NCBI GenBank assembly: GCA_029247365.1
Contig: JAQWLJ010000065.1
Coordinates: 1 to 42,532 of the forward strand
Direction: 5' to 3'
DNA: 42,532 nucleotides
DNA from: Acidimicrobiales bacterium
Lineage (GTDB): Bacteria; Actinomycetota; Acidimicrobiia; Acidimicrobiales; Aldehydirespiratoraceae
Below the pieces are notes generated by a model. The model searched no databases. It saw only the letters and a list, made by a program, of their open reading frames with translations, and was not told where the DNA came from. Position 1 is the first letter of the stretch, and every line of letters begins with the position of its first letter. Below are positions 8,818-27,953 of the stretch, one piece after another. The position numbers and the translations under genes are program-made.

Positions 8818-10383
8818 TCAGGCGACGCGATCGCGCATGGCTCGAAGCGGCGCAGAGAACATCAACAGGATCGGGAAGATTTCGAGTCGACCGATCAGCA
8901 TGTAGACGACCAGCAGGATCCGCCCTGGCTCGGTGAACGCTTCAGTGAAATTGCCGGTGGGCCCTGCGGCACCGAGGGCCAACCCCACGTTGCCGAGGGT
9001 CGAAATGATCGCGCCGACCGAGGCGGTCAGGTCACCTGAGAGTTCACTCAGAAGCACGATTCCCAACATCACGAGTACGGCGTAGACGACGAAGAATCCT
9101 GCCACGCGGCGCACGATGTCTTCGGCCACCGAGTGATCCCCATGTTTCACCGGGATCACAGCCCGCGGACGCTGCGAGCGGCGGATCGAGCGGATGCTCA
9201 GAGCGACGAGGACCTGAAGCCGCATAACCTTGATTCCTCCCGAAGTCGAGCCGCTCGAAGCCCCAACGATCATGAGGAACAGGAGCACCATCTGGGCGGC
9301 CGGCAGCCAGGTGACATAATCGCCCGGGGAGCCCGACCCCGTGGCCACCCCATAACCCGTACTGGTTCCCAGCGCGACGACGTTGAAGATTGCGCCGCGC
9401 GCGGCTGTACCGAGCGGGACCCCACCATCGATCCAGAGCAGCCCAATTACCACCGCCGCACACCCGGCCAGCATGAGCACGTAGATCCGAAATTCTGGAT
9501 CACGCACGTACGACCCACCGTCGCCTCTGAGCAGACGCCAGTGCAGCGCGAAGTTCGCACCCCCCATGACCATGCAAACGACTACGCCAATCTCGAGTAC
9601 CACACTGTCGAAGTGGCCGATGCTGCCGGGGTACGGAGAGAACCCGCCGGTCGATGCGGTGGTGAAGCCGTGCGCGATGGCGTCGTAGAGCGAGGGTCCG
9701 GGAATGACGAGAAACATCACCATGACCGCGACCGTGAAGAGCACATAGGTGGCCCAGAGGCGCTTCGCCGTCTCCGAGACCCTCGGGGACAGACGATCCG
9801 AAGATGGGCCCGGCGCCTCGGCACTCATGAGGTCAAGGCCTCCGACGCCGAGGAACGGCAGCACGGCGACGGCCAAGACGACGATGCCCATTCCTCCGTA
9901 CCACTGGGTGATCTGACGGTACATGAGCATGCCCCGCCCTGGGACCGAGAAGTCTGTCATCCCAGTGGAGCCGGTGCAGGTGTAGCCGGAAGCGGACTCG
10001 AAGATCGAGTTCACGATCTGGCCGGACCGATCAATGCCGACGGCCGCAAACGTGTCCCCTAAAATGTACGGGAGGGAGCCGAAGATCGTGACGGTGACCC
10101 AGGTCCAGCCTACCGCCGCGAACACGTCGCGGCTTCGGACCCCCTCCGGTTCCGTAGCCCACCACAACGCGAGGCCGAACAGGAGCGTGACGACTCCGGA
10201 CTGGAACAGTGCACCGGTGTCGCGGTTAGTGGAACCGAGCTCGACGAGCGCCCCAACGAACATCCCGACCGAGATGGACGCAACCGCCATTCCGATCACA
10301 TGGAGGCTCGTTGACCGCACACGCGGTCGGCGTGCATGGAGTTCGGTGGTTGCCCGACGCCGCCCGACCCGCAAGATGCTCAT
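8818..10383 (-). CDS. trkH: Trk-type K+ uptake channel subunit (canonical copy)
   Basis: The membrane pore of a K+ uptake system, 521 residues with about ten hydrophobic segments. All four P-loops have the filter glycine: TCTG (G138), STGG (G246), STGYG (G343) and GNVG (G467). GASSGSTSGGIKVMRL (about 374-389) is the flexible gating loop of the family, and GRLEIFPIL (about 498-506) is the conserved end. It is the last gene of the cyclo-ligase-trkA-trkH-trkH operon, and its ATG overlaps the stop of the preceding trkH by four bases (10380-10383). It should be gated by the TrkA protein encoded two genes upstream. The second, unequal trkH beside it is discussed in the findings. Confidence 0.95.
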   Translation of the reverse strand: MSILRVGRRRATTELHARRPRVRSTSLHVIGMAVASISVGMFVGALVELGSTNRDTGALFQSGVVTLLFGLALWWATEPEGVRSRDVFAAVGWTWVTVTIFGSLPYILGDTFAAVGIDRSGQIVNSIFESASGYTCTGSTGMTDFSVPGRGMLMYRQITQWYGGMGIVVLAVAVLPFLGVGGLDLMSAEAPGPSSDRLSPRVSETAKRLWATYVLFTVAVMVMFLVIPGPSLYDAIAHGFTTASTGGFSPYPGSIGHFDSVVLEIGVVVCMVMGGANFALHWRLLRGDGGSYVRDPEFRIYVLMLAGCAAVVIGLLWIDGGVPLGTAARGAIFNVVALGTSTGYGVATGSGSPGDYVTWLPAAQMVLLFLMIVGASSGSTSGGIKVMRLQVLVALSIRSIRRSQRPRAVIPVKHGDHSVAEDIVRRVAGFFVVYAVLVMLGIVLLSELSGDLTASVGAIISTLGNVGLALGAAGPTGNFTEAFTEPGRILLVVYMLIGRLEIFPILLMFSAPLRAMRDRVA

Positions 10384-11876
10384 TGATCCGGCCAGACGAA
10401 CCGTCGGACCTGACGGGTCGCTAGGTCTTTGACTTGCAGCAAAGACGCGACGGCAAGTAGGAGCGGCAGGATCGAGAGCCGACCAGCGAGCATGCCCGGG
10501 ATCAGCACCAGGCGACCTACACGGTCGATGCCGCCAGCGTCACCGAACGCGGTGGTAGCCAGCGACGGCCCGGATGTTGACAGTACAGAGATTGCGCCCC
10601 AGATGGCGTCGAGAATCTCGGCCCCCGTCACCGCCAGCAGGAAGGAACCCACCGCGCAGAGGCCGAAATGGGCGATCTGGTAGCCGGTCAGATGGTCGAG
10701 CTCGGCGTCGCTGAGGGGTCGATTGGCGTGCTTCACCACGATGACGGCATTCGGATCGAGCTGCCTTCGCAGCTCGCGCCCGGCGAAAAGCACGAGCATC
10801 CACGCGCGAACGACGCGAAGCCCGCTCCCGGCCGAGGCACCCATCGCCCCGGTGGCGACCGCTACCAGCAGCAGGGCCAGGCTGGCTGCCGGGAAGAGGG
10901 TCCAGTCGACCACGGCATGGCCGGTTGTGCTGGAGGCACTGGCCGCAGTGAAGAGCGCATCGCCCACCGATAGTCCCTCGACGTCGAGGACGAGCATCGT
11001 CGTGACGGAGGCGATGATGGCGACATAGAGCCGGAGTTCGGGCGATGCGAGGAACCGACGGTGGTTCCCCCGGAGCAGCCAGAACAGGGCGAAGAAGCTC
11101 ATGCCTGCGACGATCATGAAGAACGTGGCCACGACGCGAGCCGGTCCGCCCTCGGTGGCGAACGAGTCAGCGTTATCGGAGAAGCCCCCGGTGGACACGG
11201 TCGTCATCGCGTGGATCGCGGCCCCACGAAGCGGCATGCCGGTCGCGGCGTAGCCGACGAAGCAGGCGGTGGTGAGTCCCGCATAAAGTCGAAACACCCG
11301 CTGGCTGCCGACGCGTGTCGTAGGCACGAGCCGATCGGCGCTACCGCCCTCCCCCTTCGGGGTCTGTACGAGGCCCCTCATCGCTCGCGGCAGCGCGACG
11401 ACCACCGCGGTTAGACCAAGCAGGCCACCAAGCCACTGGGTCGCACCGCGAAACAACGCCACCGAGAGCGAGAGTTCACTGGGGTCGAGCGTGGTGAGGG
11501 CAACGGTGCTGAACCCGGCTGCCGACTCAAAGAGCGCGCCGTCGACGGTGGATATGGCGCCCGAGAAAACGTAGGTGGCTGTGCCGAACAGCACCATGAT
11601 CGCCCAGGTCGAGGCCATGCCGGAGAGGACGCGTGCGGTCGCCGGCTGGCGACGACGGACAAAGGTGCGCCGCCCGGCTAGCCCCAGTGCAAGTGCGCTT
11701 ACCCCGGTCAACCCAAGGACTGCTGCATCAGCCCAGTCATCGGAGGCGCCGATGGCTGACGCGAGGACGGAAGCGGTGCCGAGACGCACTAGGCCGTCGG
11801 CGATCGCTAGCCGGCTGAAGGAATCGCGAGATGCCGCGCCGAGCAGCGCTCCCTCGGACGCTGCGTGCCGGGTCAC
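10380..11876 (-). CDS. Divergent TrkH paralogue with Ala in the first selectivity filter
   Basis: A second TrkH-family membrane protein of 498 residues. The P-loop motifs align with those of the neighbour, but the first reads AGFSTVAL with Ala126 (codon 11499-11501, GCC) where the filter glycine stands. The other three loops keep glycine: STGG (G230), STTG (G319) and TSGP (G436). The gating loop is also shortened (MGASAGSGLRVVR, about 345-357, without the GSTSGGIK of its neighbour). GRLSILPLL near the end is conserved. The GTG start overlaps the trkA stop (11873-11876) and the stop overlaps the next trkH start, so all three are probably translated as a coupled set. It could be a Na+- or mixed-selectivity pore, a partner subunit in a mixed dimer, or a regulatory pseudo-channel. 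Confidence 0.9.
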   Translation of the reverse strand: MTRHAASEGALLGAASRDSFSRLAIADGLVRLGTASVLASAIGASDDWADAAVLGLTGVSALALGLAGRRTFVRRRQPATARVLSGMASTWAIMVLFGTATYVFSGAISTVDGALFESAAGFSTVALTTLDPSELSLSVALFRGATQWLGGLLGLTAVVVALPRAMRGLVQTPKGEGGSADRLVPTTRVGSQRVFRLYAGLTTACFVGYAATGMPLRGAAIHAMTTVSTGGFSDNADSFATEGGPARVVATFFMIVAGMSFFALFWLLRGNHRRFLASPELRLYVAIIASVTTMLVLDVEGLSVGDALFTAASASSTTGHAVVDWTLFPAASLALLLVAVATGAMGASAGSGLRVVRAWMLVLFAGRELRRQLDPNAVIVVKHANRPLSDAELDHLTGYQIAHFGLCAVGSFLLAVTGAEILDAIWGAISVLSTSGPSLATTAFGDAGGIDRVGRLVLIPGMLAGRLSILPLLLAVASLLQVKDLATRQVRRFVWPDQ

Positions 11877-13216
11877 CCGAGTACGCCGTGGACCTCGTCG
11901 ACCGCGCTAGGCATCGCCACCACCACGACGCGATCACGAGCCCGGAGCCGACTCCGCCCGCGTCCGATCTGCGGGTTGCCGTCCCGGACGAATGCTGCGA
12001 TCAGGGCGTTCTTAGGGAGATTGAGCTCACTGACCATCGCCCCATCGGCACGGCTGTGCTCGGCAACCTCGAGCTCGATGATCTCAGCATCGCCGTGAAG
12101 AAAGGTGGCCACGGCCGCTACGCCACCGCGCACGAAGCGAAGGACGCCGTTCGCCGTGGCGGTGCGGGGCGAGAGCGCAACGTCGACTCCAGCACCGCTG
12201 AGGAGGGACAGAAGCGCGAGACGATGCAGGACAGCCACCGTTTCGTCGGTGCCGCTCGCCTTAGCGAAGAGGCACGCGAGAATGTTGGCGTCGTCCTCGC
12301 CCGTGAGCGCAACCACCATCTCAAACCGACCGACATCGGCCTCGTCGAGCAGGTCGTCATCGGTAATGTCACCCTCAAGAACAAGACAGTTCTCGAGGCG
12401 CTCGGCGAGTTCGCGGGCGCGGTTCGTGTCTCGCTCGACCACCACCACGTGAACCCCACGGGTGGTGAGGCTGGTCGCGAGGATCTCGGCAGTGCGTCCG
12501 CCGCCGAGCAACATGACCCGCTTGGGGACGGCGCGGACCAGCCCGAGCAGCTCAGCGACGAGCTTTCCCGCATCGCTCTTGGCCACGACGCGGACGTGAT
12601 CGCCGGCCTCGAGGCGGTGGTCTCGGCGCGGGATAATGGTCTCGTCGCCGCGGCCGATGGCTGCGACCATGAAGTCCCAGTCGGGCTCAAACTCCTTGGC
12701 GATTTCCCCGAGTGTTCGGCCGACGAGCGGAGCCTCGGCCGGCAGCTTCGCGCCGATCACGATCACCTCGTCATTGGCCATGTAGGCGACTTCGTCGGCG
12801 CCGGGGAAGTCGAGGAGTTCGAGGACTTCTTGAGCCGTTTCGGCGTCGGGATCGATGAACAAGTCAGCACCTGACGCGGCACGAACTTCGGTGGCCTTCT
12901 TACTGCGAAGGTCACCCGCTTCGATGCGCACGATCGTCTGGCGGACCCCGAGCGACTTCGCCAGCATCGACGAGATGAGGTTGGCTTCGTCGTTGGCGGT
13001 GACAGCGACAAGCAGCTGCGCGTGTTCGATGCCAGCTCTTGCGAGAATCGACGGATGGGTTCCGCTGCCGCTCACGGTCAGCACGTCGAGTGCGTCGTCG
13101 AGACGCTGCAGCTTCCCCTCATCGATATCGATGATCGCGACGTCGTGGCCTTCTCGGCTCAGGCGATCGGCCACGTACGAACCGACCTCGCCGGCTCCGA
13201 CAACAACCACGTGCAC
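11873..13216 (-). CDS. trkA: Trk system K+ uptake regulatory protein
   Basis: The cytosolic nucleotide-binding ring protein that gates TrkH. It has 447 residues in the full two-repeat form: a Rossmann domain at 1-130 (VVGAGEVGS, with D30 for the ribose), a TrkA-C domain near 140-215, a second Rossmann domain from about 225 and a second TrkA-C domain near 365-447. The second nucleotide loop is degenerate (LGGGRTAE instead of GxGxxG), which is common for the second half. The GTG start gives the standard MHVVVVGAGEVG opening; no strong ribosome-binding site precedes it, and a TAGAAC hexamer lies six bases upstream. It is separated by 17 bp from the cyclo-ligase gene and is followed by two overlapping trkH genes. 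Confidence 0.95.
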   Translation of the reverse strand: MHVVVVGAGEVGSYVADRLSREGHDVAIIDIDEGKLQRLDDALDVLTVSGSGTHPSILARAGIEHAQLLVAVTANDEANLISSMLAKSLGVRQTIVRIEAGDLRSKKATEVRAASGADLFIDPDAETAQEVLELLDFPGADEVAYMANDEVIVIGAKLPAEAPLVGRTLGEIAKEFEPDWDFMVAAIGRGDETIIPRRDHRLEAGDHVRVVAKSDAGKLVAELLGLVRAVPKRVMLLGGGRTAEILATSLTTRGVHVVVVERDTNRARELAERLENCLVLEGDITDDDLLDEADVGRFEMVVALTGEDDANILACLFAKASGTDETVAVLHRLALLSLLSGAGVDVALSPRTATANGVLRFVRGGVAAVATFLHGDAEIIELEVAEHSRADGAMVSELNLPKNALIAAFVRDGNPQIGRGRSRLRARDRVVVVAMPSAVDEVHGVLG

Positions 13217-13941: not shown

Positions 13942-16032
13942 TCAGACGAAGGCGCTGGCAAACACCAGCGACACGATGGTCATCACCTTCAGCAGGATGT
14001 TCATGGCCGGACCCGAGGTGTCCTTGAATGGGTCACCGACGGTGTCACCGACGACGGCGGCCTTGTGGTTATCCGAGCCTTTGCCGCCGTGGGCGCCAGT
14101 CTCGATGTACTTCTTGGCGTTGTCCCACGCGCCGCCTGCGTTCGCCATGAAGATGGCGAGGGCGAAGCCGGTCACCAGCGCACCGGCGAGCAGCCCACCA
14201 AGTGCATCGACGTCGATGAAACCGACGACTAGGGGGACCACGACAGCGAGAGCACCCGGAACGATCATCTCCTTGAGGCTGGCGTCGGTCGAGATCGCCA
14301 CACAGCGCGCGGAGTCAGGCACGACCCCCTCCTTGCCTTCGCGTAGGCCGGGGATCTCGCGGAACTGACGGCGGACCTCCTCGATCATCGCCGCAGCAGC
14401 GCGTCCGACAGCATCGATCGTGAGCGCAGCGAACAGGAAGGGCAAGCCGGCCCCGAGGAACAAGCCGATGAACACGTCGACTTCACCGATATTGAGGCTC
14501 AATGAGCCGCCTTCCTGAATCACGGCGAACTCGAAGCTCTTGAACAATGCGAGAGCCGTGAGCGCTGCCGGGCCGACGGCGAAACCCTTCGCGATCGCGG
14601 CGGTGGTGTTGCCGAGCGAGTCGAGCGCGTCGGTGACCTCACGAACCGATGGGTCGAGCTCGGCCATCTCGGCGATGCCTCCGGCGTTGTCGGCAATCGG
14701 TCCGTATGCGTCGACGGATACGACGACACCGGTCGTGGCGAGCATGCCAATCGCCGCGACAGCGATGCCGTAAATACCGGCGAAGGGGTCATCGGCGCCG
14801 AGGGTGAGTTCGCCGCCCCAGTAGGCGACGGCCACACCGACGAGAATGAGGACGACCGACGCTGCGACCGAGATCATGCCGGCGCTGATGCCCGACAGGA
14901 TCGTGGTCGCTGGCCCTGTTTCGGTTTGTGCTGCGATCTTCTTCACGGGCCCGAAGTGGTCGGACGTGTAGAACTCAGCCGTCTTGCCCAGCGCCCAGCC
15001 CACGATGAGACCACCGATGACCGACACGGCGAGCCCGATGGGGCTGCCGTCGGCGATATCGCCAAACATCCAGAAGGCAACGCCGATGGTGGCGAGGACC
15101 GTGAGGCCCATCGCCACATTGGTGCCCATGTGAAGGGCCTTGCTGAGGGCCTTGCTGTCGGTACTGTCGCCGCCCTTCACCAGGAAGGAGCCGATGATCG
15201 AGGCGATCATGCCGACGAACGCAATCGCCATCGGGAACATGAGGAACTCGACGGTGCCGACGTTGCCAGCGTCGGCCGCAGCCAGACCGCCACCCGCAAA
15301 GGCAGTGAGTGCGACCGGAGCAATGATCGAACCGGCGTACGACTCGAAGAGGTCGGCGCCCATGCCGGCGACATCGCCGACGTTGTCGCCCACGTTGTCG
15401 GCGATGGTGGCGGGGTTTCGGGGGTCATCTTCAGGGATGCCGGCCTCGACCTTTCCGACGAGGTCTGCGCCGACATCGGCGGCCTTGGTGTAGATGCCAC
15501 CGCCCACGCGAGAGAAGAGTGCAATCGACGATGCACCGAGCCCATACGCGGTCAGGATCTCGAAGGCCTGATCGACCTCGAACCACTCGACGAACGCGAG
15601 GTAGGTCAGCATGAGACCGCCGAGGGCGAGACCCGCCACGGTGAAGCCCATCACGGCACCACCGCGGAATGCGACGGGGAGCGCCTTGCCGGGGCCGTGC
15701 TTGGCTGCCTCGGTCGTGCGGGCATTGGCCATGGTGGCCACCGTCATGCCCACGTAGCCGGCGGTCGCCGACAAAACTGCGCCGAGGAGGTAGCTGATCG
15801 CGGCGAGCGGCGTGATGACGATCGCGAGCAGGACCATCATGACCACGACGAAGGCCGAGACCCACGTGTACTCCTGCTTCAGGAAGGCCCTTGCCCCCTT
15901 CTGAATCTCAACCATGAGAAACTGCATGCGGTCATCGCCCGCCGGCGCAGCCTCCACAGCCTTGTAGTAGAACGCGGCCAAGGCGAGCCCGGCCACCGCC
16001 GAGATCAAGGCCAGATACGGTACGGCGCTCAC
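13942..16032 (-). CDS. hppA: Membrane-bound ion-translocating pyrophosphatase
   Basis: Hydrolyses pyrophosphate and pumps ions across the membrane. It has 696 residues with about 16 hydrophobic helices. Catalytic motifs are intact: DNVGDNVGD (212-220), the ESY glutamate E230, and DNAGGIAE (448-455). GNTTAAIAKG (474-483) has alanine at position 478, where K+-independent H+-pumps carry lysine (GNTTK), so this enzyme belongs to the K+-dependent class; whether it pumps H+ or Na+ cannot be decided here. VGDTVGDPFKDTSGP (661-675) is the conserved C-terminal metal/PPi motif. The GTG start has a good AGGAG site four to eight bases upstream. It is a single-gene unit with its own terminator, next to but not within the trk operon. 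Confidence 0.96.
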   Translation of the reverse strand: MSAVPYLALISAVAGLALAAFYYKAVEAAPAGDDRMQFLMVEIQKGARAFLKQEYTWVSAFVVVMMVLLAIVITPLAAISYLLGAVLSATAGYVGMTVATMANARTTEAAKHGPGKALPVAFRGGAVMGFTVAGLALGGLMLTYLAFVEWFEVDQAFEILTAYGLGASSIALFSRVGGGIYTKAADVGADLVGKVEAGIPEDDPRNPATIADNVGDNVGDVAGMGADLFESYAGSIIAPVALTAFAGGGLAAADAGNVGTVEFLMFPMAIAFVGMIASIIGSFLVKGGDSTDSKALSKALHMGTNVAMGLTVLATIGVAFWMFGDIADGSPIGLAVSVIGGLIVGWALGKTAEFYTSDHFGPVKKIAAQTETGPATTILSGISAGMISVAASVVLILVGVAVAYWGGELTLGADDPFAGIYGIAVAAIGMLATTGVVVSVDAYGPIADNAGGIAEMAELDPSVREVTDALDSLGNTTAAIAKGFAVGPAALTALALFKSFEFAVIQEGGSLSLNIGEVDVFIGLFLGAGLPFLFAALTIDAVGRAAAAMIEEVRRQFREIPGLREGKEGVVPDSARCVAISTDASLKEMIVPGALAVVVPLVVGFIDVDALGGLLAGALVTGFALAIFMANAGGAWDNAKKYIETGAHGGKGSDNHKAAVVGDTVGDPFKDTSGPAMNILLKVMTIVSLVFASAFV

Positions 16033-16360
16033 GTTTTCTCCTGTCGTAGCGCGTCAAATTGACCCTGGGAAGCTATCGACAATACGTGCTCGCTACACGC
16101 ATTCTCTGGTGATTCTGCGCAGCGATTTCGTCTCTTGGCCGTCTATTTCCTCCCCACGGCAACACCTCGGGCTAGCGTTGGTTGCGCTCCGCTGGGCTCT
16201 GCGGTCCTTCGGTAGCCATCGGTCGTTCAACGGGCGACGGGGGCAGTCCGACTCCGGGGCAGCAAGCAAGGCGGCAGGCACGCGGCTTCCATGGCGAGTT
16301 GCGGATGAATCCACCGTTCGCCCACGCACCATCCACTCTCGCGTCTGCGAGACTGCGTTT
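16033..16360. other. Intergenic region upstream of hppA and the J-domain gene
   Basis: This 328-bp stretch lies between two divergent genes and must hold both promoters. It contains the hppA ribosome-binding site and a small perfect palindrome GTCAA-A-TTGAC at 16053-16063, twenty bases before the hppA GTG. A frame open through it on the plus strand continues into the J-domain gene, but its translation (rich in R, S and P, no fold) does not look coding. I found no tRNA arm set and no convincing structured RNA. Confidence 0.4.
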
Positions 16361-16900
16361 GTGGATCTCCACGCTGCGATCGCTGCGCTCGGACTCTCTG
16401 GCTCCCCTCCGTGGAGTGAGATCCGGCGAGCCCACCGAGCGGCGATTCGTCGCGCCCATCCCGACGTCGGTGGAGATCCGGTTCACGCCGCCAAGATCAA
16501 TCAGGCCTTCGATGCGCTGCATGCGGCCACCAAGGGCGGCACCATTACGTTGCCCAACCCGGCGCCGCCTCTTCCCGCGGCTCCGGCTGCGAGTTCGCCG
16601 CGCCGCATGGTCGATCGCGACGACCCGACCGAAATCCTGCTTCGCCTCTCCGACGCAGCGCATGACATCGGCGATGTCGTATTCATCGATCCGGTCGCAG
16701 GGCTCATGGAAGTTGTCGTGGGTGACGCGCCTGCAGTCGGTCAGCTCACCATCCACGTCGGCGCCTCGGAACTGAGCCATGACGGTGTCCCGGTCGCGTT
16801 TACCCTGGACGCGCTCGGCGTCACCCCAGCCCCGCTGATCCACGACGTCGTCGATGACCTGATGCGCAGGTATCGCAACCGAAAACTCAACGGCGCCTAG
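16361..16900 (+). CDS. J-domain (DnaJ-like) protein
   Basis: A 179-residue protein with an N-terminal J domain: WSEIRRAHRAAIRRAHPDVGGDP, with the HPD tripeptide at 33-35, followed by KINQAFDAL. Such domains stimulate DnaK-type Hsp70 ATPases. A proline/alanine-rich linker (about 60-85) leads to a C-terminal domain of about 95 residues that I do not recognise; it has no zinc cysteines or G/F region, so this is not DnaJ itself. The frame is open 84 codons further upstream, but that part is low-complexity and unlike protein; the GTG at 16361 places the J domain at a natural distance from the start. No clear ribosome-binding site is seen. The stop shares CTAG with the convergent PfkB kinase gene. 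Confidence 0.75.
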   Translation: MDLHAAIAALGLSGSPPWSEIRRAHRAAIRRAHPDVGGDPVHAAKINQAFDALHAATKGGTITLPNPAPPLPAAPAASSPRRMVDRDDPTEILLRLSDAAHDIGDVVFIDPVAGLMEVVVGDAPAVGQLTIHVGASELSHDGVPVAFTLDALGVTPAPLIHDVVDDLMRRYRNRKLNGA

Positions 16901-17754
16901 CGAGCGACGGTCGGGCCAACGTTTTGCAATACGCGCGCCGCTACCCGATGGCCGGCGTGACACGCCGACACCGCATCCGCACCGGTGCGGCGCGAGGCCA
17001 GGAAGCCGGCAAGAAAGCCGTCGCCGGTGCCGGTCCGGTCGCGAATTTTGTCGATCGGGCTCACCGGCACGGATTCCACTCGTCCCGAGCCATCGAGTAC
17101 CAACGTTGGTCTCGGTCCAGCTGTCACGATCGTGACCGCCGCGCCGGCTATCGCCTGACGCGGCTGGCATCCCACGCTGGCGTGCTCGGCCCGGTTGAGC
17201 ACCACCGCGTCGGGGTGAAGGGCGCGCATCAGTTCTGCGAAGGCATCAACGCCAAGGAGCTCGAGGTCAGCGGCCGAAGGACCGCCCACGACGACAGGAA
17301 CTCTCAAATCGGTGATTGACGCCAGGAGCCCCTCGATGGCGCTGGCGAGCGGATCCTCGGTGAAAGCCGATGCTGCAACATAGAGCTGGCTCACCCCGGT
17401 TAGATCAACGTCCTCGAGTAGGGCTGGACCACGGGAGGCGCCGCGGTCGACCAGCCGGCTTCGGACGCCGAGGGCAACAGTGGTGACGATGACGCCCGTT
17501 GCGCCCGCATGGCGAACATCGGCCTGCACCCCGCGAGATCGGATGTCGTCTGCGAGGACGTGCCCGAGGGCATCCTCGCCAACCTGGCATACCAACCGCG
17601 GCGTACCCCCCATTTCGGCGTCGATCGCTGCCACGTTCGCGGCTGACCCGCCCCGAACGCGAGCGCTGCGCACCGAGGTGTCTTGGCCGCGCACCGGCGC
17701 GCCCTTCATCTGCAGGAGTAACTCTTCTAGGAGGTCGCCGATCGCCAACAGCAC
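16897..17754 (-). CDS. PfkB-family carbohydrate kinase
   Basis: A ribokinase-fold sugar or nucleoside kinase of 285 residues. The substrate loop GGSAAN is at 35-40, and the ATP/anion-hole signature DRTGTGDGFLAGFL is at 239-252, with the catalytic base D245. The N-terminus (LLAIGDLLEELLLQ) is the usual first strand. The substrate is not readable; adenosine, ribose or 2-keto-3-deoxy sugars are all possible for this family. The gene starts with GTG and has no Shine-Dalgarno site; a TACATT -10 hexamer sits seven bases before the GTG, so the mRNA is probably leaderless. The stop overlaps the J-domain gene stop by four bases. Confidence 0.88.
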   Translation of the reverse strand: MLLAIGDLLEELLLQMKGAPVRGQDTSVRSARVRGGSAANVAAIDAEMGGTPRLVCQVGEDALGHVLADDIRSRGVQADVRHAGATGVIVTTVALGVRSRLVDRGASRGPALLEDVDLTGVSQLYVAASAFTEDPLASAIEGLLASITDLRVPVVVGGPSAADLELLGVDAFAELMRALHPDAVVLNRAEHASVGCQPRQAIAGAAVTIVTAGPRPTLVLDGSGRVESVPVSPIDKIRDRTGTGDGFLAGFLASRRTGADAVSACHAGHRVAARVLQNVGPTVAR

Positions 17755-19537: not shown

Positions 19538-20578
19538 ATGTCGGATCTTCCCCCTGATCCCCGCTCTATCGACGTGCCGACCTTGGTGCCGGTCGATGCT
19601 CTCTCCGGCGAGCCGTCGTCAGACCAGACGGCGGAGTCGAGACAACGACGTTGGTGGATGTGGGTGTTGGTTGCGATCATGTCGGTTTTGGCGCTGTCGG
19701 TAGGCGCGTCCGCCGTCGTCGCAGCCAAGGTATGGGGGGATGTGGAGCGGGTTGACCTCGGTGCATCGATGCGGGGGGCTCGAACCGGCACCAACTACCT
19801 GATCGTTGGCACCGATTCGCGCGCCGGAGTCGATCCTGGAGTGCACAACGCCGACGTGCTCTTCGGTACCGATGTCGTTGGCGAACGGACCGACACGATT
19901 GCAGTCCTGCGGGTCAACGGCGGCGCCGTTTCTCTCCTTGCGATCCCACGCGACCTCTACGTGCCCATTGCCGGGGGCGCCCCGAGTCGGATCAATGCCG
20001 CATTCGCGATCGGGGGCCCAGCCGACCTCATCGATACCGTGCAGCGCGAGCTCGGAATCGGGATCGACCATTACCTCGAAGTTGATCTCGCTGGCTTTCT
20101 CGGTCTCGTCGATGCACTCAGCGGCGTGACCATCGACTTCAGCCATTCCGCCTATGACGATCGCTCCGGACTTGTGGTCGAGGTCGCCGGGCCCCACCGG
20201 CTCACGGGTAGTGACGCGCTCGCGTATGTACGTTCTCGCCGCTATACCGAGGTCGTCGACGGTGTCGCCGTGACCGACCCGACATCGGATCCTGGCCGAG
20301 TGCAACGTCAGCAACGGTTCTTCGCCGCCGTGATGACCCAGCTTGGAACCACCAAGAACCCAATCACGCTGTTTGACACACTCCGGGCTGTCGCTGCCAA
20401 CGTCGCCGTCGACGACGGAATGGGAGTGGTCGACGCAGCCTCTCTCGGCCTGACGCTGCGCGGAGCTGACCCGGTTACCGCCACGGTTCCCACGGCCCGC
20501 CACTTCACGGCGACTGGGGGTGACGTGCTCATCCTGACGGCGCAGAGCGACGCGATTCTGGCCGAGTTTCGGGGCTGA
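19538..20578 (+). CDS. LytR-CpsA-Psr (LCP) family protein
   Basis: LCP enzymes transfer lipid-linked glycopolymers onto peptidoglycan outside the membrane. The 346-residue protein has a cytoplasmic N-terminus, one membrane helix (about 39-65) and an extracellular LCP domain. Key residues are present: NYLIVGTDSR (86-95), ERTDTIAVLRV with R117 and D119, AIPRDLYVPI with R138 and D139, and YVRSRR (230-235) followed by DPGRVQRQQRF. These arginines and aspartates bind the pyrophosphate-polyprenyl group and Mg2+. ATG 19538 starts MSDLPPDP; the frame is open 37 codons upstream, but that would overlap the divergent M23 start. It belongs with the two cell-envelope genes to its left. Confidence 0.92.
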   Translation: MSDLPPDPRSIDVPTLVPVDALSGEPSSDQTAESRQRRWWMWVLVAIMSVLALSVGASAVVAAKVWGDVERVDLGASMRGARTGTNYLIVGTDSRAGVDPGVHNADVLFGTDVVGERTDTIAVLRVNGGAVSLLAIPRDLYVPIAGGAPSRINAAFAIGGPADLIDTVQRELGIGIDHYLEVDLAGFLGLVDALSGVTIDFSHSAYDDRSGLVVEVAGPHRLTGSDALAYVRSRRYTEVVDGVAVTDPTSDPGRVQRQQRFFAAVMTQLGTTKNPITLFDTLRAVAANVAVDDGMGVVDAASLGLTLRGADPVTATVPTARHFTATGGDVLILTAQSDAILAEFRG

Positions 20579-20582
20579 CCGC

Positions 20583-20588
20583 TACGGT
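20583..20588 (+). promoter_or_regulatory. Leaderless -10 (TACGGT) of the phosphotransferase gene
   Basis: TACGGT lies seven bases before the ATG at 20596 and only a few bases after the LCP stop. No Shine-Dalgarno site is seen, so this gene may have its own leaderless transcript despite following the LCP gene closely. Confidence 0.4.
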
Positions 20589-20595
20589 CGCTGAG

Positions 20596-21768
20596 ATGGG
20601 CGAACCGACACCGACGACGATGGCTGGCTTTACCCCAGCCTGGCTGACCGAGGAACTGCGGCGAGGCGGAGCGATTTCGGGGTCGACCACTGTGACGTCG
20701 GTCGACCGGAAGACGCTTGGCGAGGGAGAGGGCTTCATGGGAGAGCTGGCCCGGCTCACCATTGGCTACAGCGGCGAGCCGGGCCCGGCCACGATGATTG
20801 CCAAGATCCCGACACAGGTAGCCCACAACCGGGCGCGCGGCCGGTCGCTCGGCGTGTACCAGCGCGAAGTCCGGGTCTATGCCGACCTGTTGCCTCATCT
20901 TCCGATTCCGTCGCCGGCGGTCTACGCGGCGATCTACGAGGAAACCGGCGAGGAGCCAGACGTCCTCGCGCAGATGCTCAAGGCCGAGAAGCTGCCGCTG
21001 TGGCTCCTGCGCGTCCTCATCCGGCGAGCCGCGTTGAACGCCGATGTGCCTCCGACGGTGCTTCTCCTTGAAGACCTCGGCGCACACGCCCGGGTGGGCG
21101 ACCAGGTCGTCGGCACCTCGGTCGATGTCGTGGGTCGTGCCCTCGGGAGCCTGGCGCCCTTCCACGCAGCGTCTTGGGGAGCCCACGACATCCCCGACGA
21201 GCCCTACTTGCAGAGCCCGGCCGTGATTAGCCGGATCTTCCACGCCGGCTTCCGCAACAGCTACAAGCGCTTTATCGCCGAGATGGGACATCTGCTGTCA
21301 CCCCACACGGTCGCCCTGCTGCGCTCAGTCAAGAAAACCGGTATCCAACGTCGCCGCCAGCTGTACAGCGATCCCCCGCAATGTCTGCTCCACGTCGACT
21401 TCCGACTCGACAACCTCTTCTTTGACACCAACGACGACATAGCCTGCGTGATCGACTGGCAGACGTCCACGCCAGGGCCTGCTGCCTACGACCTCTGCTA
21501 TTTCATCACCGGGTCGCTCCCCGCCAACACCCCAGAGACCGCGATCGACGGACTAATAGCGCAGTATCACGAGCATCTCATGGCCGCTGGGGTGACCGAC
21601 TATCCCCTCGAACAACTCCAGGCCGACTACAACGCCTGCCTGATGCTGAGCTTGGAGGGACTGCCGCTCGGCTTTGACGAACTCGAGTTCGGCGATGAGC
21701 GAGGTCGCGACCTGATCGAGGGCTGGATCCAGCGTCTCGACGCCAGGGCACAGCGGGTTCCGGCGTAG
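20596..21768 (+). CDS. Kinase-fold phosphotransferase (APH/EcKinase-like)
   Basis: A 390-residue protein kinase-like fold of the aminoglycoside/choline phosphotransferase clan. MIAKIP (K70) is the ATP lysine, VLLLEDLG (155-162) the hinge, HVDFRLDNLFF (266-276) the catalytic loop with D268 and N273, and CVIDWQ (284-289) the Mg2+-binding D287. The combination HVDFRLDN and IDWQ is closest to the ecdysteroid-kinase-like bacterial members often found with CoA-ester and lipid catabolism genes. The substrate is unknown; there is no reason to call it antibiotic resistance. It follows the LCP gene by 17 bp and precedes menB by 10 bp. Confidence 0.85.
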   Translation: MGEPTPTTMAGFTPAWLTEELRRGGAISGSTTVTSVDRKTLGEGEGFMGELARLTIGYSGEPGPATMIAKIPTQVAHNRARGRSLGVYQREVRVYADLLPHLPIPSPAVYAAIYEETGEEPDVLAQMLKAEKLPLWLLRVLIRRAALNADVPPTVLLLEDLGAHARVGDQVVGTSVDVVGRALGSLAPFHAASWGAHDIPDEPYLQSPAVISRIFHAGFRNSYKRFIAEMGHLLSPHTVALLRSVKKTGIQRRRQLYSDPPQCLLHVDFRLDNLFFDTNDDIACVIDWQTSTPGPAAYDLCYFITGSLPANTPETAIDGLIAQYHEHLMAAGVTDYPLEQLQADYNACLMLSLEGLPLGFDELEFGDERGRDLIEGWIQRLDARAQRVPA

Positions 21769-26253: not shown

Positions 26254-26303
26254 GCGCTCACCCGACTGCGGATATGGGTCGCAGATGCGGCAGGCTAGAA
26301 GCC

Positions 26304-27521
26304 ATGGAGACTCGCGATCTGCTCATCATCGGTGGCGGACCTGCCGGAGCTGCGACGGCCATCCGAGCCGCCCAAGGGGGCGCTTCCGTTCGTGTGTTCG
26401 AGAAGGCCGAGAAGGGGCGCGACAAGGTATGCGGCGACGGCCTCACGCCTCGCGCGGTGACAGCCCTCGCCGATCTCGACGTCGATCTCGCCGACGCGCA
26501 CCAGATCGCAGGTCTCCGCATGATCGCCGGCAAGACCCAACGTGAGCTGCCCTGGCCCGACAACGGTCGGTTTGCTCCCCACGGCGCGGTCTGGCCTCGA
26601 CGCCGCCTCGACGAACGCCTCATCAGTCTCGCAGGCGAGGCAGGCGCCGAACTCGAGTTCAACGCGGACGCTCTTCCGATCATCGAAGATGGCCGGGTCG
26701 TCGGCGTTGAGGCCAATGGCCGCAAATGGCGTTCCGACCTCGTCGTCATCGCCACGGGCGCACCGGGTGCCGTCGCCCGCATGCTCGGCGCCGAGCGCGA
26801 CCCCGACGAGCCTTTCGGACTCGCAATCCGTACCTACGCAGAGTCGCCGCGCCATGCCGACCCTCACCTCGAAGCCTGCCTGACGCTCAAAGACGAGCAC
26901 GGCACCGCCGTCCCGGGCTACGGCTGGATGTTCCCCGCCGGTGACGGGACGGTCAATATCGGTGTCGGCGCGCTCTCCACGATGAAGGGTTTCAAGAAGC
27001 TCAATCTCAACAAGCTTCAGGCCAGCTACCGCTCGCTGGTCGATGAGGCGTGGGGGTTGGGGCCTAACCTCGAGCGTCCGCGGGCCTGGCGGTTGCCGAT
27101 GAGTACCCAGAGGCGGCACGGGCCTGGGTGGGTTGCCATCGGGGACGCTGCTGGCCTTGTCAACCCAATGAACGGCGAGGGCATCGACTACGGGCTGGAG
27201 TCCGGGATGCTGGCCGCCGAGCTGTTCCTGGCCGACCCGGCGACGGCACCCACCGAGTACGACCGACTCGTCGGTCAACGCTTCGACTCCTTCCTCAGCA
27301 CTGGACGGCGGTTCAGTTTCCTGATCGGACATCCCTGGCTCTTGCGCAGCGGACTTCGACTCGCGGTTGGCACCCACGCAATCGCGGATATCACGTTGCA
27401 AGTCATGGGTAACCTGGTCGACGATCAGACCCCGGGTGCTGCAGGCCGCGTCTTGCGTATCGCCGACAAGACGCTCGCTGTGGCAGATCCACTTTTGCGC
27501 CGAACCCGCGCCGCAGCCTAG
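26304..27521 (+). CDS. Geranylgeranyl reductase-family FAD enzyme (menaquinone reductase-like)
   Basis: A 405-residue flavoprotein. IIGGGPAGAATAIRAA (8-23) binds the FAD; GRDKVCGDGLTPRAV (38-52) is the geranylgeranyl reductase family signature; GDAAGLVNPMNGEGIDYGLESG in the second half closes the flavin site. Actinobacterial members such as MenJ reduce one double bond of the menaquinone isoprenoid tail at the membrane; others act on archaeal-type lipids or chlorophyll. The nearby menB and thioesterase fit the menaquinone role but do not prove it. ATG 26304 starts METRDLLIIGGG; the frame is open further upstream inside the preceding gene, which is not meaningful. Confidence 0.88.
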   Translation: METRDLLIIGGGPAGAATAIRAAQGGASVRVFEKAEKGRDKVCGDGLTPRAVTALADLDVDLADAHQIAGLRMIAGKTQRELPWPDNGRFAPHGAVWPRRRLDERLISLAGEAGAELEFNADALPIIEDGRVVGVEANGRKWRSDLVVIATGAPGAVARMLGAERDPDEPFGLAIRTYAESPRHADPHLEACLTLKDEHGTAVPGYGWMFPAGDGTVNIGVGALSTMKGFKKLNLNKLQASYRSLVDEAWGLGPNLERPRAWRLPMSTQRRHGPGWVAIGDAAGLVNPMNGEGIDYGLESGMLAAELFLADPATAPTEYDRLVGQRFDSFLSTGRRFSFLIGHPWLLRSGLRLAVGTHAIADITLQVMGNLVDDQTPGAAGRVLRIADKTLAVADPLLRRTRAAA

Positions 27522-27575
27522 ACCGCCACGCATGGCCAACACGACTCGGCGATCGCCCGGTGGGCGGTCGATCTC

Positions 27576-27953
27576 ATGCCGTTCTGCGGCCACCTTGCCG
27601 TGCGCGACGTCAGCGGCTCGACTGCGGGGGTGACGGCCTATGCCGACTGGCGCCAGGAGTTCTGCACCGGGGGCACCGCCCTGCATGGCGGGTACTTCAT
27701 GGCGCTGGCAGACGGTATCGGTGCCGCAGCTGCCGCCTATCACCTACCCATGGGTGTGGGAACTTCGACTATCAAATCCAAAACCAATTTCTTGCGAAGC
27801 GCGTCGGAGGGCGAATTGACGATCGTCGCGACGCCGATCCATACCGGACGCCGCACCATCGTCGTGCAGACCGACATCTACCGAGCCGGCGGCAAGTTTG
27901 CGAGCCGCACCACCCAAACCCAGGCTGTGCTTTCACCCACCGCCGAGGCGTGA
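27576..27953 (+). CDS. PaaI-type hotdog thioesterase
   Basis: A hotdog-fold acyl-CoA thioesterase of 125 residues as called. LHGGYFMALADGIGAAAA (about 36-53) is the active-site helix with the HGG and the acidic D of the PaaI family. In the window it follows the menaquinone-reductase-like gene, so 1,4-dihydroxy-2-naphthoyl-CoA hydrolysis is an attractive inference. The start is doubtful: the in-frame stretch 27534-27575 (GQHDSAIARWAVDL) looks like real protein but has no start codon, while an ATG at 27532 is out of frame by one base. The 3' end overlaps the convergent deoxyribosyltransferase-like gene by 21 bp. Confidence 0.75.
   Translation: MPFCGHLAVRDVSGSTAGVTAYADWRQEFCTGGTALHGGYFMALADGIGAAAAAYHLPMGVGTSTIKSKTNFLRSASEGELTIVATPIHTGRRTIVVQTDIYRAGGKFASRTTQTQAVLSPTAEA

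What the first reader, a model, noticed from the sequence alone, without database searches (positions are those of the whole stretch)
10380..11876. Tandem TrkH pair in which one copy has Ala for the first selectivity-filter glycine
Seen: two unequal TrkH genes and one TrkA gene overlap in a single operon. The 521-residue copy keeps glycine in all four P-loops. The 498-residue copy has A126 in the first (codon 11499-11501 read as GCC), glycine in the other three, and a shortened gating loop. Known: in plant HKT channels a serine at this first-loop position shifts the pore to Na+, and changing filter glycines in bacterial KtrB lowers K+ selectivity. Inference: the second copy may be a Na+ or mixed-ion pore, or form a mixed dimer that tunes TrkH. 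An A-G-G-G filter next to a G-G-G-G one is an unusual arrangement that I do not know to be described.
Basis: partly seen in the sequence, partly recalled or inferred. Interest (0 to 1): 0.62.

Follow-up and report, generated by a model that had tools for sequence, protein, structure and literature searches.

The report
Paired potassium channels, one filter altered
In many bacteria of the order Acidimicrobiales the potassium-uptake channel is encoded by two unequal genes side by side, and one partner has lost one of the four glycines of its ion filter in most lineages examined, much as plant sodium channels did; what that partner carries has not been measured.

Summary
TrkH2 (10380-11876, -) has Ala126 (GCC, 11499-11501) where V. 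parahaemolyticus TrkH has filter Gly113; TrkH1 (8818-10383) has four glycines; trkA, trkH2 and trkH1 overlap by 4 bases each. The 'shortened gating loop' is not confirmed: 11 residues in both. In 198 genomes sampled from the order (Acidimicrobiales by named relatives), 66 match: 53 have both types, 13 a lone TrkH. First filter position: upstream copy A26/S10/N9/G8, downstream G 56/56, lone G 13/13; the other three glycines of the upstream copy are kept (53, 53, 52 of 53). Upstream copies form one side of a tree branch, evolve faster but under purifying selection, and have altered the intramembrane gate and the cytosolic loop facing TrkA. No other K+ uptake family was found in the genome. A second Actinomycetota family shows a parallel: the trkA-proximal copy has Ala at the third filter position in 16 of 23 readable genomes. 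Best reading: a specialised, still conducting pore subunit with lowered K+ affinity or selectivity, sharing TrkA with TrkH1, perhaps as a heterodimer. Selectivity and dimer make-up were not tested. New variant of a known kind.

The parts
11873..13216 (-). trkA: two-RCK regulatory ring subunit, first gene of the operon
   Evidence: PF02254 161.2 bits and PF02080 86.4 bits; NF007039 TrkA equivalog 406.1 bits, cut-off 293
10380..11876 (-). trkH2: second pore subunit (498 aa, GTG start) with A-G-G-G filter
   Evidence: PF02386 81.5 bits; AlphaFold2 model pLDDT 89.5, VIA Z 47.5 to TrkH 6v4k_A
8818..10383 (-). trkH1: canonical pore subunit (521 aa) with G-G-G-G filter
   Evidence: PF02386 211.5 bits; phmmer 2.1e-73 to 3pjz_A
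11499..11501 (-). codon GCC, Ala126 of TrkH2, first filter position (VpTrkH Gly113)
11184..11186 (-). Gly231 of TrkH2, second filter position
10920..10922 (-). Gly319 of TrkH2, third filter position
10569..10571 (-). Gly436 of TrkH2, fourth filter position
10815..10850 (-). intramembrane gating loop of TrkH2 (residues 343-354, GAMGASAGSGLR); T and K of the loop in TrkH1 are A349 and R354 here
   Evidence: non-helical gap 343-354 between two helices in the model
9229..9264 (-). intramembrane gating loop of TrkH1 (residues 374-385, GASSGSTSGGIK)
9970..9972 (-). Gly138 of TrkH1, first filter position
11873..11876 (-). GTGA overlap of the trkA stop and the trkH2 start
10380..10383 (-). ATGA overlap of the trkH2 stop and the trkH1 start

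Best explanation
Shown: trkH2 is an old, maintained paralogue found together with trkH1 and nearly always encoded between trkA and trkH1; its first filter glycine is A, S or N in most copies while the other three are kept, and its gate loop and its TrkA-facing D1-D2 loop have changed too. Inferred: TrkH2 still forms a conducting pore, but with one distorted filter strand, so K+ affinity and K+/Na+ selectivity are lower than in TrkH1. It is translated in step with TrkH1 and works with the same TrkA. The contact that clamps the channel shut with ADP (HN1, D1-D2 loop) is probably weakened in TrkH2, while the D3-D4 side (HN2) is at least partly kept. The likeliest assembly is a TrkH1-TrkH2 dimer on one TrkA ring: one tightly gated K+ pore and one looser, low-affinity or Na+-permissive pore, in a cell with no other recognised K+ uptake system. 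Alternatively each forms its own dimer.
For: Order survey: 66 of 198 genomes match; 53 have the upstream type. Each of the 53 also has a downstream type: 51 adjacent, 2 (G058, G131) on another contig. P1: up A26 S10 N9 G8; down G56/56; lone G13/13; P2, P3, P4 in up G53, 53, 52 of 53. Tree without the P1 and gate columns: up, down and lone each one side of a branch (SH-aLRT 97, 96, 100). dN/dS of up 0.046-0.26 in the 22 of 26 listed pairs that gave a value; up less conserved than down in 1172 of 1176 pairs of 49 genomes. Gate: T352 56/56 down, 13/13 lone, 6/53 up; K357 54/56 down, 13/13 lone, 6/53 up; D4M2 Arg 50/53 up. D1-D2 loop (160-189): conservation 0.16-0.29 up against 0.62-0.65 down; block 370-379: 0.51 up against 0.41 down. 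HN1/HN2 roles: PMC6987127, passages. KdpA, Kup and further PF02386 proteins not found in the 98.2% complete genome. Parallel in family f102: Ala at P3 of the trkA-proximal copy type in 16 of 23 readable genomes. Effect of Gly to Ala in KtrB: titles only, in reference lists.
Against: No transport, binding or complex data exist here for any of these proteins. 8 of 53 upstream copies have Gly at P1, 6 of them all the sampled members of family f28. HN2 residues are not clearly kept: H377 is H in 30/53 up and 31/56 down, but R379 is R in 17/53 up against 33/56 down. The D1-D2 loop is not the only relaxed region: blocks 70-79, 140-159 and 440-459 have up/down ratios of 0.43-0.50. In f102, 4 of 10 genomes without a detected second copy also have the Ala form, three of them 95-100% complete, and 1 of 13 with a second copy has Gly, so an altered filter can stand alone there; those copies keep the gate Lys and Thr. 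The heterodimer rests on co-occurrence and gene overlap alone.
Confidence: 0.45

Rival explanations
1. Two separate homodimeric channels share one TrkA: TrkH1 for scarce K+, TrkH2 as a low-affinity K+ or Na+-permissive channel. No mixed dimer forms.
For: The solved TrkH is a dimer of one protein (PMC6987127 passages); TrkH2 copies keep three filter glycines and the gate arginine in 50 of 53; in two genomes (G058, G131) the two types lie on different contigs, which fits separable proteins; GGAG channels without a detected second copy exist in family f102.
Against: Adjacent in 51 of 53 genomes, 4-base overlaps in the window, and no sampled genome of the order has the upstream type without the downstream type (0 of 53).
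Confidence: 0.3
2. TrkH2 is a poorly conducting or silent partner that modulates TrkH1 assembly or TrkA gating, with a relaxed first filter strand.
For: Four different residues at P1, changed gate Lys and Thr, much looser D1-D2 loop; faster evolution.
Against: P2, P3 and P4 glycines at 53, 53 and 52 of 53 and the D4M2 arginine at 50 of 53 are hard to explain if the pore does not conduct.
Confidence: 0.15
3. Neutral decay: TrkH2 is a redundant copy losing function.
For: Less conserved than TrkH1 in 1172 of 1176 genome pairs.
Against: dN/dS 0.046-0.26; present in 53 sampled genomes of 16 families; three glycines unchanged.
Confidence: 0.04

Closest known systems
TrkH-TrkA of Vibrio parahaemolyticus (PDB 3pjz, 4j9u, 6v4j-l)
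   Same: Fold (VIA Z 47.5, 442 aligned residues, rmsd 2.4), four P-loops, intramembrane loop, D4M2 arginine, a TrkA partner gene
   Different: GGGG filter and one TrkH in the complex; TrkH2 has Ala at P1, other gate residues and a divergent D1-D2 loop
Plant HKT class I (AtHKT1;1, OsHKT1;1, OsHKT1;5)
   Same: Loss of the first filter glycine with the other three kept (PMC7918770 passages); related fold (AtHKT1;1 8w9n Z 33.1, aligned 329, rmsd 4.3)
   Different: HKT class I has Ser and is generally considered to lack the intramembrane loop (PMC7918770 passages); no TrkA (recalled). TrkH2 has Ala (S or N in relatives), a TrkA gene and the loop
TrkG and TrkH of E. coli K-12
   Same: Two TrkH-type pores in one cell; TrkG but not TrkH takes up Na+ (PMC9898762 abstract and passages)
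   Different: Each pore loop of both is said to contain the conserved glycine; Na+ dependence is linked to D327 near P3, not to a filter substitution; not one operon (recalled)
KtrB filter-glycine mutants of Vibrio alginolyticus (Tholema 1999, 2005)
   Same: Gly to Ala at one filter position; the 1999 title reports a two orders of magnitude fall in K+ and Na+ affinity (reference lists)
   Different: Laboratory mutants; the 2005 paper was looked for and is not held, the 1999 paper was not looked for
Streptococcus sanguinis TrkA1-H1 and TrkA2-H2
   Same: Two TrkH proteins per cell with proposed different ion coupling (PMC12691585 passages)
   Different: Each TrkH has its own TrkA; no filter change is mentioned in the passages seen

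Membership tests
Trk/Ktr/HKT superfamily (PF02386 TrkH) | score above the curated Pfam cut-off | tested here: met
   TrkH2 81.5 bits, cut-off 27
Trk/Ktr/HKT superfamily (PF02386 TrkH) | TrkH fold of four M1-P-M2 repeats | tested here: met
   model pLDDT 89.5, pTM 0.90; Z 47.5 to 6v4k_A, aligned 442, rmsd 2.4
canonical TrkH (four-glycine K+ filter) | glycine at all four filter positions | tested here: not met
   A126-G231-G319-G436; TrkH1 meets it
canonical TrkH (four-glycine K+ filter) | intramembrane loop GSTxGGxK beneath the filter | tested here: not met
   same length, but A349 and R354 in place of T and K
canonical TrkH (four-glycine K+ filter) | conserved arginine in D4M2 (VpTrkH R468) | tested here: met
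   R466 in RLSIL of TrkH2
NCBIfam TIGR00933 TrkH family potassium uptake protein | score above the curated cut-off 331.15 | tested here: not met
   TrkH2 138.2 bits; TrkH1 with 257.2 bits also falls below
plant HKT class I | serine at the first filter position with glycine at the other three | tested here: not met
   Ala in the window; Ser in 10 of 53 upstream relatives
plant HKT class I | no intramembrane loop in D3M2 | tested here: not met
   loop of 11 residues present; the feature itself is from PMC7918770 passages
plant HKT class I | Na+-selective transport | not testable with these tools
   no transport assay

The most novel reading that the evidence does not exclude
Acidimicrobiales use an asymmetric, double-barrelled cation channel: a TrkH1-TrkH2 heterodimer on one TrkA ring with one K+-selective, nucleotide-clamped pore and one Na+-permissive or low-affinity, loosely clamped pore. 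The second pore arose when the native trkA-linked TrkH lost its first filter glycine after a four-glycine partner became available, the route plants took with class I HKT; a second actinobacterial family did the same at the third filter position.
Probability: 0.3. Interest if true: 0.8.

Novelty: new variant of a known kind. Interest (0 to 1): 0.6.

Why it matters
It is a natural series of single-glycine filter substitutions in bacteria, at the position that separates the SGGG from the GGGG plant HKT channels. The genes lie in a compact operon, and in the window's genome no other recognised K+ uptake system was found. That makes two open questions testable in E. coli: why TrkH, KtrB and HKT channels are dimers of two full pores, and whether a difference between the two pores is used. 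If glycine loss depends on having a GGGG partner, it would also show how cells tolerate a less selective pore.

Tried and rejected
Isolated variant or sequencing error: rejected, Ala in the 5 other sampled members of the family. Shortened gating loop: rejected, equal length. Pseudogene: rejected on dN/dS and on conserved P2-P4. Chance alignment at P1: the residue was read in its local context as well as from columns. A general property of TrkH pairs: rejected; neighbouring pairs with both copies GGGG exist (L133, L137, L144-L147; L165, L168, L223). Literature: ten searches of open-licence PMC full text. In the listings, and in the passages of the six papers opened (PMC9898762, PMC6987127, PMC7918770, PMC3645709, PMC5449183, PMC12691585), I saw no report of this operon or of a bacterial TrkH with a natural non-Gly filter; most subscription papers are not held, so this is not proof of absence. 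Family f102 could not be given a name. Fisher values ignore kinship; on the tree, G/non-G at P1 needs 5 changes. The trees are of the 'quick' kind with long branches flagged; no AU test was run. Searches used a profile that matches TrkH in general, so their tallies count TrkH carriers, not TrkH2 carriers.
Full report
What is there. The minus strand carries trkA (13216-11873), trkH2 (11876-10380) and trkH1 (10383-8818), overlapping by GTGA and ATGA. Pfam gives the TrkA_N domain 161.2 bits, TrkH1 211.5 and TrkH2 81.5 bits against a TrkH cut-off of 27. TrkH1 and TrkH2 are 29% identical. Against V. parahaemolyticus TrkH, A126 of TrkH2 falls on filter Gly113; the codon is GCC at 11499-11501. TrkH1 has G138, G247, G343, G467; TrkH2 has A126, G231, G319, G436. 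The gating loop is not shortened: 11 residues in both.

Fold. AlphaFold2 with a 44-row alignment gives TrkH2 a mean pLDDT of 89.5 and pTM 0.90, with the D3M2 helix broken (330-342 and 355-373) around residues 343-354. The nearest solved structures are TrkH (6v4k_A, Z 47.5, 442 residues, rmsd 2.4), then KtrB and plant HKT (AtHKT1;1 8w9n, Z 33.1, 329 residues, rmsd 4.3).

Genome. The window is a whole contig of a 3.1 Mb, 98.2% complete assembly. TrkH1 and TrkH2 are the only PF02386 matches. KdpA and Kup have none, while the same searches ring in 5 and 6 of 14 control genomes. Another RCK protein is a small channel with TTVGYG (L034). So this operon is the only K+ uptake system recognised by these families; one outside them, or in the missing part, is not excluded.

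Survey of the order. TrkH2 as query matched 66 of 198 genomes drawn from the order. I read loci of all 66: 53 have the upstream type and 13 a lone TrkH. Two short fragments (L106, L107) were left out of the counts. By locus the order is trkA-trkH-trkH in 48 (window included), trkA-trkH-trkH-trkH in one, three trkH at a contig end in one and two trkH without a trkA hit in one; in G058 and G131 the downstream type lies on another contig. The 53 belong to 16 families. First filter position: upstream A26, S10, N9, G8; downstream G 56 of 56; lone G 13 of 13. Upstream P2, P3, P4: G 53, 53, 52 of 53. The five other sampled members of the window's family all have Ala; the eight Gly are all six of family f28 plus one each in f51 and f56.

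Names. They hold 96 TrkH frames: 84 GGGG, 4 AGGG, 4 NGGG, 4 SGGG. The 12 non-Gly ones are upstream copies in 13 tandem loci (L148-L160). Eleven of the 13 are titled Acidimicrobiaceae, Acidimicrobiales, Acidimicrobiia, Candidatus Microthrix or marine actinobacterium MedAcidi-G1; L149 is titled Acidobacteria and L160 Gammaproteobacteria. L201, titled Acidimicrobiia, has a single GGGG TrkH on a 4.5 kb contig. Four of the 13 (L151, L152, L153, L155) have the contig lengths of loci already surveyed; the other nine are new by that test and all nine are non-Gly. This makes 54 of 62 upstream copies. The order is therefore taken to be Acidimicrobiales.

Evolution. With the P1 and gating-loop columns left out, upstream, downstream and lone copies are each one side of a branch (SH-aLRT 97, 96, 100), and G/non-G at P1 needs 5 changes. 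In a wider, thinned tree of 164 proteins the 28 upstream copies included (100) group with the 13 lone TrkH of the order and five lone copies from class and phylum (98), and not with the 29 downstream copies, which need 2 changes there. So TrkH2 looks like the native trkA-linked TrkH, altered once a four-glycine copy was beside it; the root is not inferred, so this order of events is an inference. Upstream copies are less conserved than downstream ones in 1172 of 1176 pairs among 49 genomes with exactly one downstream copy at the locus. Their dN/dS is 0.046-0.26 in 22 of the 26 closest pairs listed (4 gave no value; pairs share genomes, and some dS exceed 1).

What else changed. Upstream copies lose T352 and K357 of the intramembrane loop (6 of 53 keep each; downstream 56 and 54 of 56; lone 13 and 13 of 13) and E470 beside the gate arginine (10 of 53 against 54 of 56); the arginine stays in 50 of 53. 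In VpTrkH the HN1 contact (T175, R177) with TrkA holds the channel shut with ADP, and the D3-D4 loop forms HN2 (H377, R379), kept in all states (PMC6987127, passages). In upstream copies the blocks of 160-189 have conservation 0.16-0.29 against 0.62-0.65 downstream, the lowest ratios of all, while 370-379 has 0.51 against 0.41. R177 is R in 17 of 53 upstream, 48 of 56 downstream and 13 of 13 lone; H377 is H in 30 of 53, 31 of 56 and 13 of 13; but R379 is R in only 17 of 53 upstream against 33 of 56. Blocks 70-79, 140-159 and 440-459 are also relaxed (ratios 0.43-0.50). I infer weaker clamping of TrkH2, with the tether at least partly kept; the second half of that is the weaker inference.

A parallel. 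Outside the order, the class and phylum samples had TrkH matches in 96 of 247 and 151 of 296 genomes, members of the order included. From these lists I chose 40 places and read 53 TrkH frames: P1 was non-Gly in one of 51 readable (L129, Ser). But in family f102 the copy next to trkA has Ala at the third filter position (for example TGTAF against TTTGY) with a four-glycine copy behind it. A survey of f102 matched 32 of 39 genomes; 30 loci were read. Of 23 upstream-type copies with a readable site, 16 have Ala and 7 Gly. With a second copy in the genome: 12 Ala, 1 Gly (in G676 the second copy is in broken frames). Without a detected one: 4 Ala, 6 Gly (Fisher p 0.019, kinship ignored). L255 (broken frames) and L256 (no P3) were dropped. 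So loss of one filter glycine in the trkA-proximal copy arose in at least two lineages, but a lone GGAG channel is possible in f102.

How it probably works. Filter glycines line the pore; a side chain at P1 should distort one of four strands (inference). In plant HKT, Ser at P1 generally goes with Na+ selectivity while P2-P4 stay Gly, with exceptions noted by the authors (PMC7918770 passages). In KtrB one Gly to Ala change is reported, by title only, to lower K+ and Na+ affinity by two orders of magnitude (reference lists). The spread of A, S and N argues against one tuned Na+ filter and for a lowered or loosened K+ filter that still conducts. Whether TrkH2 pairs with TrkH1 in one dimer is not shown; I rate it a little likelier than separate dimers because in the sampled order the upstream type was never found without the downstream type.

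Verdict. New variant of a known kind.

Noticed in passing
L132:3491-4945, L134:2523-3974, L135:4398-5873, L136:3547-5007, L138:1401-2861: Second actinobacterial family (f102) with trkA-trkH-trkH in which the trkA-proximal copy has Ala at the third, not the first, filter position.
   Followed up: partly
L129:2655-4316: Lone TrkH beside trkA with Ser at the first filter position, outside the class; its relative L128 has Gly.
   Followed up: no
L099:3207-4694: Upstream copy with Gly at P1 but Ala at P4 (VSNNATY), the only P4 change among 53.
   Followed up: no
L043:3097-8172 and L050:3231-7599: Triple trkH arrays; the middle copy of L050 (4841-7597) has Ala at P3 (SNTAF).
   Followed up: no
13942-16032: Membrane pyrophosphatase two genes from the trk operon; its GNTTAA motif is, by recall, that of K+-dependent enzymes.
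   Followed up: no
20596-21768: Bacterial protein matching the ecdysteroid kinase-like family PF02958 (84.6 bits).
   Followed up: no
16172-17170, 20308-21291, 26295-27743: Long ORFs without any Pfam match at 0.001; whether all three are genes was not checked.
   Followed up: no
L149, L160: Record titles (Acidobacteria, Gammaproteobacteria) disagree with the Acidimicrobiales-type trk operon they carry; perhaps mislabelled bins or transfer.
   Followed up: no
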